Below, one piece after another: positions 24,063 to 29,068 of a stretch of DNA of 64,000 nucleotides. The notes beneath the pieces are model-generated. The model worked only from the letters and a program-made list of their open reading frames with translations, ran no database searches and was not told the origin of the DNA. Source of the stretch: Candidatus Syntrophocurvum alkaliphilum (lineage in GTDB: Bacteria > Bacillota > Syntrophomonadia > Syntrophomonadales > Syntrophomonadaceae); assembly GCF_009734445.1 (NCBI RefSeq), contig NZ_CP046457.1:2164001-2228000 (forward strand), given 5' to 3'. Made by a program: the position numbers and the translations under genes. The stretch's first letter is position 1; every line of letters starts with the position of its first letter.

Positions 24063-24914
24063 ATGAGTAGTAGTTGGAACATTAGACAACTTATAGATTG
24101 GACAACCCGGTATTTTAATGATATGGGTATTGAGGAACCACGCTTAGAAGCTGAGATTCTTTTATCCCATGTGTTACAAAGAAACCGGGTTTATTTGTAT
24201 ACAAATCATGAAGAACCTGTTAACCAACATGAAAGAACTTGCTATAGGGAATATATAAAAAGAAGGGCTAAAGGTGAGCCTGTAGCTTATATTACAGGTG
24301 TAAAAGAGTTTATGTCATTAGATTTTAAAGTTACACCAGATGTATTAATTCCACGTCCAGATACGGAAATATTAGTTGAAAATGTAATAATGCTTGCACA
24401 AAACAATAGTTCCATAAAAAAAATATGTGATGTGGGCACAGGTTCTGGTGCAATAGCTGTGAGCCTGGCTTTTTATCTTGAAGACAAGACTATTTATGCT
24501 TGTGATATTTCTGAAAACGCTATTGAGGTAGCTAAGCAAAATGCTCTAAATAACAATGTTTCTATAGAAACATTTGTGGGTGATTTATTAGAACCGGTTA
24601 AAAATCAAGCTAAATTTCATGTAATTACTGCAAACTTACCCTATATTTCTAAAGAAGAATACTTTAAGTTAGACAAACAAGTTATACAATTTGAGCCTAA
24701 ACTGGCTTTATTAGCTGAAAAAGATGGATTAGAAGCTTATAGGGAGATGCTACCACAAGCATTAAACTTATTAGATGATGGTGGTTATATTTTTATAGAA
24801 ATTGCATCTAATCAGACTGAAAAAGCTTTAGAACTGTTTAAGGGATTTAGTAGTATAGAAATTTTAAAGGATCTACCAGGTAGAGACAGAGTAATAAAAG
24901 CAAGAAAGGAGTAA
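24063..24914 (+). CDS. prmC: Release factor glutamine methyltransferase
   Basis: Methylates the glutamine of the GGQ motif of release factors, here made next door. 283 residues; N-terminal helical domain then a SAM-binding domain with VGTGSGAIAVSLA and IPRPDTEILVE. The catalytic tetrapeptide is NLPY (ITANLPYIS) where most PrmC have NPPY; the Asn and Tyr that hold the glutamine are kept. Its stop codon overlaps the region where the next gene must start. Confidence 0.93.
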   Translation: MSSSWNIRQLIDWTTRYFNDMGIEEPRLEAEILLSHVLQRNRVYLYTNHEEPVNQHERTCYREYIKRRAKGEPVAYITGVKEFMSLDFKVTPDVLIPRPDTEILVENVIMLAQNNSSIKKICDVGTGSGAIAVSLAFYLEDKTIYACDISENAIEVAKQNALNNNVSIETFVGDLLEPVKNQAKFHVITANLPYISKEEYFKLDKQVIQFEPKLALLAEKDGLEAYREMLPQALNLLDDGGYIFIEIASNQTEKALELFKGFSSIEILKDLPGRDRVIKARKE

Positions 24915-25897
24915 TTGCTTTTAAAACACAACATATAAAAATAAACAATTTAAAACCTGAAGAAAAAATAATAGATATCGCTACAAACACTATTAATAAC
25001 GGGGATATAATAGCTTTTCCTACAGAAACAGTTTATGGAGTGGGGGGGCACTGTTTAAATAAGGAAGCTGCCAAAAAGGTTTTTGCTGCGAAAATGCGTC
25101 CTTTAGATAGTCCCTTATTAGTTCATGTAAGTACCATTGAGCAGGTAAATGAACTGGTTAATACTATACCTGAGGCAGCTAAGAAGCTAATGAATGAATT
25201 TTGGCCTGGACCACTTTCGATTATATTGCCATCTAAAGAGACTGTACCACCAGAAGTAACTGGTGGCAAAAAAACAGTTGGCTTAAGGATGCCAGCTCAT
25301 CCTGTTGCTATTGCCCTAATAAACAAAACAGGTCCACTTGCAGCTACAAGTGCAAATTTATCAGGGCGTCCAAGCCCAGTTACTGCAGAACATGTGAAAA
25401 ATGATTTAGAAGGTAGAATTCCCATAATCTTAGATGCAGGACCTACTGGTGTTGGTGTTGAATCAACAATTGTGGATTTAAGCACTTCTGAAACAACTAT
25501 TTTAAGACATGGAGGGATAGATGAAGAAAAGATTAGAGAATGTTTAGAAGCTGAATATATAAATGTGGAAACCCAGGATTCTAGCTATCAAACCTTAATA
25601 AAAATAATTTTAGCTAAAAACATGAATGATTTTTATAAACTGATTGAAAATAATATAAGAAACAAGAAAAAAATAGGTGTTGTGCATAATAATATCATTA
25701 ATACGAATAGTATTAAAAATGTATATAACAATTATCTAATTAACCTTGAAAAAAATACTGGGGAGCTATTTAGTTTGTTACGGGATGCGGAAACAAAAAA
25801 AGTAGAGGTTTTAATATTTGCGCCACTACCTGAAGATAAATTTGGTCTATCCTCAGCTTTAATAGAGCGAATTCGCAAAGCTACATCTAAAGAATAG
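24914..25897 (+). CDS. Sua5-type threonylcarbamoyl-AMP synthase without a canonical start codon
   Basis: Makes threonylcarbamoyl-AMP for the t6A37 tRNA modification. Sequence shows the YrdC/TsaC domain with AFPTETVYGVGG, the KxR motif in FAAKMRP, TSANLSGRP and GVESTIVDLS, then a C-terminal Sua5-like domain (KIGVVHNN to the end). In this frame there is no ATG, GTG, TTG or CTG between a stop at 24881 and the GTG at 25040, which lies after the conserved FPTETVYG. I therefore start it at ATT 24914, overlapping the prmC stop as TAATT; AAAGGAG is just upstream. Alternative: a TTG at 24915 with a single-base frameshift in TTTTAAAA. The usual PGMKYxHYAP linker between the two domains is not found. 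Confidence 0.75.
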   Translation: MAFKTQHIKINNLKPEEKIIDIATNTINNGDIIAFPTETVYGVGGHCLNKEAAKKVFAAKMRPLDSPLLVHVSTIEQVNELVNTIPEAAKKLMNEFWPGPLSIILPSKETVPPEVTGGKKTVGLRMPAHPVAIALINKTGPLAATSANLSGRPSPVTAEHVKNDLEGRIPIILDAGPTGVGVESTIVDLSTSETTILRHGGIDEEKIRECLEAEYINVETQDSSYQTLIKIILAKNMNDFYKLIENNIRNKKKIGVVHNNIINTNSIKNVYNNYLINLEKNTGELFSLLRDAETKKVEVLIFAPLPEDKFGLSSALIERIRKATSKE

Positions 25898-27361: not shown

Positions 27362-29068
27362 ATGCTTTTGGTTTTAGGTAGTGATCATGCTGGAGTAGAA
27401 TTAAAAGAGTACCTTATAGGTCTTTTAACAGAAGAGGGCTACGAAATAATTGACTGTGGTACAAACACTACTGATTCAGTTGATTATCCAGATATAGCAG
27501 AAAAAGTTGCACAAGAAGTTTTGGATAAAAACATATTAGGAATACTTATTTGTGGGACAGGCATAGGGATTTCTATAGCTGCTAACAAATTAAATGGCAT
27601 TAGGGCAGCTGCTTGTCATGATATTTATACTGCGCGCTTAAGTAGAGAGCATAATAATGCAAATATTTTAACTGTTGGATCTAGGGTTATTGGTCCAGGT
27701 CTTGCTTGGGAGATAATAAAAACTTTTATAGATACAAAATTTCAAGCAGGGAGACATAAGCTTAGAGTCGAAAAAATACATGCAATAGAAAATAAAATGC
27801 TGAGAGGAGTAGAAAAAGTGGATTACATTGAGAACTATGTAAGGCAAGCTGATCCAGAAATAGCAAATGCTATTAAAAAAGAAGAGCAGCGCCAAAATAC
27901 AAAATTGGAGTTAATTGCATCAGAAAATTTTGTTTCTAGAGCTGTCATGGCAGCTCAAGGTTCTGTGATGACTAATAAATATGCAGAAGGTTACCCAGGT
28001 AAAAGATATTATGGTGGCTGTGAGTATGTTGATGTAGCAGAGGAACTAGCAAGGCAAAGAGTTAAAGAACTGTTTGGAGCTGAACATGCAAATGTTCAAC
28101 CACATTCAGGAGCTCAAGCAAATACCGCAGTTTATTTTGCTGCATTAGATCCTGGAGATACGATTTTAGGAATGAACTTAAGCCATGGTGGACATTTAAC
28201 CCATGGAAGTAAGGTTAATTTATCTGGTAAGTATTTTAACGTATATGATTATGGAGTAAAACCAGATACAGAAATTATTGATTATGATGAATTAAGAGAT
28301 ATAGCCAAAAAAGTAAAGCCTAAAATGATAATAGCTGGGGCAAGTGCATATCCCAGAATCATTGATTTCAAGGTGTTTAAGGAGATTGCAGATGAAGTTG
28401 GAGCCTATCTTTTTGTGGACATGGCTCATATAGCAGGTTTAGTAGCTGCTGGTCTACATCCAAACCCTGTGCCTTATGCTGACTTTGTTACATCGACAAC
28501 GCATAAAACATTACGTGGACCAAGGGGGGGCTTGATACTTTGTAAAGAAGAATGGGCTGCCAAAATAGACAAAGCAGTGTTTCCGGGAATACAGGGTGGT
28601 CCGCTAATGCATGTGATAGCTGCAAAAGCAGTTTGTTTTAAAGAAGCTTTAGACTCATCATTTAAAAACTATCAGCAAACAATAATTGATAATGCCAATC
28701 AGCTAGCAACAAGTCTTATCGAAAATAATCTTAGATTAGTATCTAATGGAACTGATAACCATCTAATGCTTGTTGATGTGCGACCTAAAAACTTAACTGG
28801 AACAGACGCAGAAGAAATCTTAGAAATGATAAACATTACTGCTAATAAAAATGCTATACCATTTGACCCGCAAAAACCAACAGTTACTAGTGGTATTAGG
28901 TTAGGAACACCAGCTGCTACTAGCAGAGGATTTAAGCCAGAGGATATGAAAAAAGTTGCAGAAGCTATTAGCATAGCCCTAAGCAACCCAGATAATCCTG
29001 CAAGAAAGGCTGAAGCACGTGAAATAATTAACATTTTATGTGATAAATATCCCCTTTACCACATATAG
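27362..29068 (+). CDS. In-frame fusion: ribose-5-phosphate isomerase B + serine hydroxymethyltransferase
   Basis: One uninterrupted 568-codon frame. Residues 1-147 are a complete RpiB (sugar isomerase; [12 protein letters not shown] opening, [14 protein letters not shown] with the catalytic Cys, and [11 protein letters not shown] at the usual end). Residues about 153-568 are a complete GlyA (PLP enzyme making glycine and methylene-THF; [22 protein letters not shown] and the PLP lysine in [12 protein letters not shown]). Only about 12 linker residues join them. In related genomes rpiB and glyA are separate neighbours. An internal ribosome binding site and GTG (27818) before the GlyA part are intact, so both a fusion and a free GlyA could be made. 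Confidence 0.85.
27818..29068 (+). CDS. glyA: Possible independently translated GlyA from internal start
   Basis: GAGGAG (27804-27809) and GTG (27818) are eight bases apart, in frame with the fusion. Translation here yields 416 residues starting [15 protein letters not shown], the normal size and N-terminus of serine hydroxymethyltransferase. The site looks like the original glyA start that survived when the rpiB stop codon was lost. Confidence 0.55.

What the first reader, a model, noticed from the sequence alone, without database searches (positions are those of the whole stretch)
24881..25040. Sua5 gene without any canonical start codon
The conserved FPTETVYGVGG is preceded by 35 residues of credible N-terminus, but the frame has no ATG, GTG, TTG or CTG after the stop at 24881. 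ATT at 24914 sits where an overlapping TAATG would be expected. Options: ATT start, translation coupled to prmC, or a one-base indel in TTTTAAAA next to a TTG at 24915. Since t6A synthesis is essential in most bacteria, the gene is probably expressed.
Basis: seen in the sequence. Interest (0 to 1): 0.6.

Follow-up and report, generated by a model that had tools for sequence, protein, structure and literature searches.

The report
Sua5 gene starting at TTT codon
A single-copy, probably essential tRNA-modification gene in a soda-lake bacterium has no normal start codon; where its relatives start with ATG, GTG, TTG or CTG it has TTT, correctly spaced from a strong ribosome-binding site, which points to an extremely rare start codon unless that base is a sequencing error.

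Summary
Confirmed: the sua5 (tsaC2) frame 24884-25897 is intact, single-copy, and has no ATG, GTG, TTG or CTG before GTG 25040, which lies past the FPTETVYG motif. The genome's length matches Ca. Syntrophocurvum alkaliphilum B(2M), CP046457; that assembly was Illumina-corrected, so an indel is not favoured.

In 58 sua5 loci from the family and order the start clusters just before [K/E/Q/N]-T. Fifty have ATG, GTG or TTG there or within a few codons; six have only CTG, each 33 codons before PTETVYG. Here that column holds TTT (24920-24922), 8 nt after the Shine-Dalgarno GGAG, the commonest spacing in this genome. ATT (2 nt) and TTG 24915 (3 nt) lie at almost unused distances. Likely history: TTG changed to TTT, with weak initiation at UUU coupled to prmC termination. 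That UUU works as a start is inferred. A miscalled base, ATT initiation, or TTG plus a -1 slip on T_TTA_AAA remain open.

By-product: ftsA and fni, like infC, have conserved ATT/ATC/ATA start columns in this lineage, and this genome's ppaC starts with CTG.

The parts
24063..24914 (+). prmC (hemK), upstream gene whose end carries the sua5 Shine-Dalgarno sequence; stop TAA 24912-24914
   Evidence: ORF and sequence; gene name from its NPPY-type (NLPY) methyltransferase sequence and position after prfA; junction homologous in relatives
24906..24911 (+). Shine-Dalgarno sequence AAGGAG of sua5, inside prmC
   Evidence: spacing statistics
24914..24916 (+).
24915..24917 (+). TTG in the other frame; would need a -1 shift or an extra base; 3 nt from GGAG
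24920..24922 (+). TTT in the homologous start column, 8 nt from GGAG, 33 codons before PTETVYG: inferred start codon
24920..24926 (+). T_TTA_AAA heptamer in phase with TTG 24915 (rival -1 frameshift site)
   Evidence: at chance frequency in the window
24895..24903 (+). 5' arm TAAAAGCAA of a perfect 9-bp hairpin whose loop holds the Shine-Dalgarno sequence and the prmC stop
24915..24923 (+). 3' arm TTGCTTTTA of that hairpin, covering TTG 24915 and TTT 24920
24920..25897 (+). sua5 (tsaC2) coding sequence from the inferred start to the stop at 25895-25897
25016..25039 (+). conserved FPTETVYG motif
25040..25042 (+). GTG, first canonical start codon in frame; inside the YrdC domain

Best explanation
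An intact, single-copy Sua5 gene (threonylcarbamoyl-AMP synthase, first step of t6A) whose start codon has drifted out of the canonical set. Shown: the frame, the absence of canonical starts, TTT in the homologous start column, and its modal Shine-Dalgarno spacing. Inferred: the ancestor used TTG (or CTG) at 24920 as relatives do; a change at 24922 gave TTT; initiator tRNA still starts there at low efficiency, helped by AAGGAG 8 nt upstream and by ribosomes finishing prmC 5 nt upstream, which would also open the local hairpin. The low output would be tolerated.
For: 58 sua5 loci: 50 with ATG/GTG/TTG near the column, 6 with CTG only, always at -33 codons, TTT at -33 here. Gap-free junction homology with G020: AGAAGGGAGTAATTAGACTGGAA against AGAAAGGAGTAATTGCTTTTAAA. 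GGAG-to-start spacing in this genome peaks at 8 nt (39 of 173), AAGGAG at 8 (22 of 60). Intact domains, only TsaC-family match in the genome. Illumina-corrected assembly. Other non-canonical starts in the same genome: ppaC CTG, infC ATT, ftsA ATT, fni ATH.
Against: UUU mismatches the initiator anticodon at two positions and I found no natural bacterial UUU start in the held papers. Initiator tRNA and IF3 look normal, so nothing special favours UUU. One genome only; no reads, proteomics or ribosome profiling. G001 and G023 start one codon upstream of the column, where this genome has GCT.
Confidence: 0.5

Rival explanations
1. The base is wrong in the assembly, or is a recent culture variant: the real codon at 24920 is TTG (or one base is missing) and the gene starts normally.
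For: One substitution restores the codon of the relatives G030 and G011. No second genome of the genus is held. The assembly began from Nanopore reads.
Against: Two Pilon rounds with 16 million 250-nt Illumina reads plus SPAdes make errors in unique sequence rare, and a substitution rarer than an indel. The T also completes a perfect hairpin.
Confidence: 0.2
2. Initiation at ATT 24914, overlapping the prmC stop as TAATT, giving MAFKTQHIK.
For: ATT is a genuine start for infC in this genome and probably for ftsA; AUU is far better than UUU as a codon in general knowledge; G020 also has ATT at this position.
Against: 2 nt from GGAG, a spacing seen in 2 of 173 genes. The column is not conserved as ATH (AGA, AGG, ATA, ATT in the CTG relatives), whereas the CTG is invariant among them.
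Confidence: 0.13
3. Initiation at TTG 24915 followed by a -1 slip on T_TTA_AAA, giving MLLKTQHIK.
For: TTG is a canonical codon, and a shift-prone X_XXY_YYZ heptamer in exactly the right phase leads into the sua5 frame.
Against: 3 nt from GGAG, a spacing seen in 0 of 173 genes; no strong structure close downstream; the heptamer occurs 90 times in the window against 76 expected; not conserved in relatives.
Confidence: 0.08
4. No separate start: -1 shifting near the end of prmC makes a PrmC-Sua5 fusion.
For: G013 and G006 have prmC and sua5 in one open frame.
Against: No X_XXY_YYZ site before the prmC stop here; most relatives have separate genes with their own Shine-Dalgarno and start.
Confidence: 0.04
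5. The gene is a fresh pseudogene that lost its start codon.
For: The start codon differs from all relatives; whether t6A is essential varies between bacteria (general knowledge).
Against: More than 320 intact codons, KxR and SxN motifs kept, and no other TsaC-family match in the genome.
Confidence: 0.05

Closest known systems
infC (IF3) with AUU/AUC/AUA start codons
   Same: Housekeeping gene with a conserved strong Shine-Dalgarno and no canonical start; low initiation controlled by IF3 (PMC5472188; infC of this genome starts ATT)
   Different: infC starts are ATH (mismatch only at the third base) and conserved widely; sua5 here has TTT and is unique in its family
sigR of Streptomyces, GTC start codon (PMC5472188)
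   Same: A codon outside ATG/GTG/TTG/ATH used as a natural start, with IF3-mediated repression
   Different: GTC was shown experimentally and is conserved; TTT here is inferred from one genome
cvfC1 (AUU) and ccpN (AUA) of Staphylococcus aureus (PMC13009471)
   Same: Non-canonical start supported by a strong Shine-Dalgarno sequence; about 10% of AUG output in poor medium
   Different: ATH codons, mapped by ribosome profiling
CTG-start sua5 of other Syntrophomonadales (G017, G020, G034, G038, G067, G073)
   Same: Orthologous gene, same column at -33 codons, no ATG/GTG/TTG in frame, prmC-overlapping Shine-Dalgarno in several
   Different: CTG keeps two of three base pairs with the initiator anticodon; TTT keeps one

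Membership tests
Sua5 / TsaC2 (threonylcarbamoyl-AMP synthase) | YrdC domain followed by a Sua5 C-terminal domain | tested here: met
   PF01300 8.8e-61 and PF03481 2.7e-07, both over cut-off
Sua5 / TsaC2 (threonylcarbamoyl-AMP synthase) | KxR...SxN catalytic motifs | tested here: met
   KMR and SAN in the translation; motif definition from PMC9654439
Sua5 / TsaC2 (threonylcarbamoyl-AMP synthase) | Makes threonylcarbamoyl-AMP | not testable with these tools
   Needs an enzyme assay
Genes with non-canonical start codons | No ATG/GTG/TTG in frame before conserved coding sequence | tested here: met
Genes with non-canonical start codons | Codon in the homologous start position with well-spaced Shine-Dalgarno | tested here: met
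   TTT at -33 codons, 8 nt from GGAG
Genes with non-canonical start codons | Initiation shown at that codon | not testable with these tools
   Needs N-terminal peptides, ribosome profiling or reporters
Genes with non-canonical start codons | The same unusual codon conserved in close relatives | tested here: not met
   No other TTT-only start in 58 loci; no second genome of the genus held
Programmed -1 frameshift | Slippery heptamer in phase, with stimulator and conservation | tested here: not met
   Heptamer in phase, but no strong close downstream structure, not conserved, chance frequency

The most novel reading that the evidence does not exclude
A natural bacterial gene, single-copy and probably essential, that uses UUU as its start codon, as the end of a drift from TTG or CTG in a lineage where sua5, ppaC, ftsA and fni repeatedly use weak starts, so that t6A supply would depend on how stringently the ribosome selects start codons.
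Probability: 0.45. Interest if true: 0.7.

Novelty: new variant of a known kind. Interest (0 to 1): 0.5.

Why it matters
I know of no natural bacterial gene shown to start at UUU, and gene finders would truncate or lose such genes. If real, it shows that Shine-Dalgarno placement and coupling can carry a housekeeping gene on a start codon with two mismatches. The comparison also shows that sua5 lacks ATG/GTG/TTG in six relatives and that ftsA and fni have conserved ATT/ATC/ATA start columns in this lineage, so a set of genes likely to be sensitive to IF3 becomes directly testable in cultured Syntrophomonas.

Tried and rejected
No closer relative was found: family and order searches gave the same set, genome contigs only distant hits, viral contigs none. 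Altered initiator tRNA: one normal GGGCTCATAACCC anticodon stem and Met tRNA genes. Relaxed IF3: no change at positions conserved in relatives. Conserved hairpin: not seen in relatives. Second Sua5/YrdC copy: none. More genes with a strong Shine-Dalgarno before a non-canonical codon: only sua5 and infC stood out clearly. The 64-codon initiation paper (Hecht 2017) is not held, so no value for UUU is quoted. The first patterns for ppaC and fni failed and were replaced by alignment.

Full report
What was checked. The window lies in a single-contig genome of 2,360,781 bp, the exact length reported for Ca. Syntrophocurvum alkaliphilum B(2M), CP046457, G+C 32.5% (PMC7005122). The sua5 frame between TAG 24881 and the stop at 25895-25897 is open, encodes YrdC and Sua5_C domains, keeps the KxR and SxN motifs, and is the only TsaC-family match in the genome. 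It has no ATG, GTG, TTG or CTG before GTG 25040. GTG 25040 lies inside the YrdC domain after FPTETVYG, so it is unlikely to begin a functional enzyme (inference).

Where the start should be. I collected 58 sua5 loci from the family and order and read the codons upstream of PTETVYG. The start clusters immediately before [K/E/Q/N]-T. In several relatives an in-frame stop lies directly or a few codons upstream (G026, G014, G004, G022), which fixes the position. Fifty loci have a canonical codon 29-37 codons before the motif (30 ATG, 10 GTG, 10 TTG). Six have only CTG, always including position -33 (G017, G020, G034, G038, G067, G073). One (G013) runs in frame from prmC. The window genome has TTT at -33, that is 24920-24922. 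The relative with the highest Sua5 identity, G030 (52%), and its congener G011 (50-51%) have TTG. G020 has 2,936,195 bp, which by my recollection is the length of the Syntrophomonas wolfei Goettingen genome; its junction AGAAGGGAGTAATTAGACTGGAAACG aligns without gaps to AGAAAGGAGTAATTGCTTTTAAAACA, so Shine-Dalgarno, prmC stop and start column are homologous. G001 and G023 have ATG one codon further upstream, so the column is not absolutely fixed; the corresponding codon here is GCT.

Shine-Dalgarno spacing. Among 307 ATG genes of this genome without a nearby alternative start, 173 have GGAG within 25 nt upstream. The distance from GGAG to ATG peaks at 8 nt (39 genes), with 2 genes at 2 nt and none at 3 nt. 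For AAGGAG the peak is also 8 (22 of 60), none below 5. TTT 24920 is at 8 nt, ATT 24914 at 2, TTG 24915 at 3. Spacing and homology agree on TTT; codon identity alone would favour ATT or TTG.

Is it an error? The assembly began from Nanopore reads but was corrected twice by Pilon and combined with Illumina reads in SPAdes. An indel in a four-base homopolymer is unlikely after that. A substitution cannot be excluded without the reads, and with only one genome in the genus there is no second witness. I give error or culture variant 0.2.

Does this organism tolerate odd starts? In 1.264 Mb and 975 scored genes I looked for coding signal upstream of the first ATG/GTG/TTG. Besides sua5, the recognisable intact genes were infC (ATT), ppaC (CTG), fni (ATC or ATA) and an ftsA-type gene (ATT). 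A 400-kb control from G020 gave no convincing case in 249 genes, but that sample is smaller and its G+C differs, so no rate difference is claimed. Alignment to relatives shows that ppaC has ATG or TTG elsewhere and CTG here. The ftsA gene has ATT in the same column in all eleven Syntrophomonadaceae loci compared (two also have ATG one or two codons upstream). The fni gene has ATA, ATC or ATT before Arg, with no canonical codon in the stretch shown for most loci. infC is ATT or ATC in all nine read. The initiator tRNA anticodon stem is normal and IF3 keeps the conserved residues, so no change of the machinery is seen.

Mechanism (inferred). Ribosomes finishing prmC at 24912-24914 stand next to AAGGAG with the candidate codon 8 nt from GGAG. 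Initiation at UUU would be inefficient. A reporter study in E. coli is cited as showing activity for 47 of 64 codons (PMC12350097), and CUG is quoted at 0.86% of AUG (PMC11497404); I could not read a value for UUU. A perfect 9-bp hairpin (24895-24903 with 24915-24923) would hide the start until prmC is translated. It is not conserved and 18 such repeats occur in the window against 2-7 in shuffles, so its role is only suggested.

Rivals. ATT 24914: good codon, poor spacing, column not conserved. TTG 24915 with a -1 slip on T_TTA_AAA: the heptamer fits exactly, but spacing is poor, no strong stimulator lies close downstream, and the heptamer is at chance frequency. Fusion to PrmC: two relatives have prmC and sua5 in one frame, but no slip site is seen here. 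Pseudogene: contradicted by the intact single-copy gene.

Verdict. The most likely reading is a non-canonical start at TTT, not ATT. It is a new variant of a known kind, resting on one genome and without expression data.

Noticed in passing
G000:C1:553840 (L238) and relatives L239-L248: The ftsA-type gene has ATT in its start column in all eleven Syntrophomonadaceae loci compared, about 7 nt after AAGGGG/AAGGAG, while other families of the order have ATG: a conserved AUU start for a cell-division gene.
   Followed up: partly
G000:C1:1267870-1268919 minus strand (L223) and relatives L224-L237: fni (type 2 isopentenyl-diphosphate isomerase) has ATA/ATC/ATT in its start column before Arg in nearly all relatives, after a strong AGGGAGG, with no canonical codon in the stretch shown for most.
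   Followed up: partly
G000:C1:384738 (L208): ppaC (manganese-type inorganic pyrophosphatase with CBS domains) starts with CTG six nt after GGAGGG, where relatives have ATG or TTG.
   Followed up: partly
L090 (G006), L103 (G013): prmC and sua5 form one open frame, a possible natural PrmC-Sua5 fusion.
   Followed up: no
window 27362-29068: RpiB and serine hydroxymethyltransferase (GlyA) are read as one 568-codon open frame without a stop between them.
   Followed up: no
window 24895-24923: A perfect 9-bp hairpin presents the sua5 Shine-Dalgarno sequence and the prmC stop in its 11-nt loop; absent from relatives.
   Followed up: partly
G000:C1:760536-760835 and G000:C1:678977-680092: ORFs resembling a cysteine desulfurase C-terminus and a sigma-54 activator have coding signal but no start; possible pseudogenes or frame errors.
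   Followed up: no
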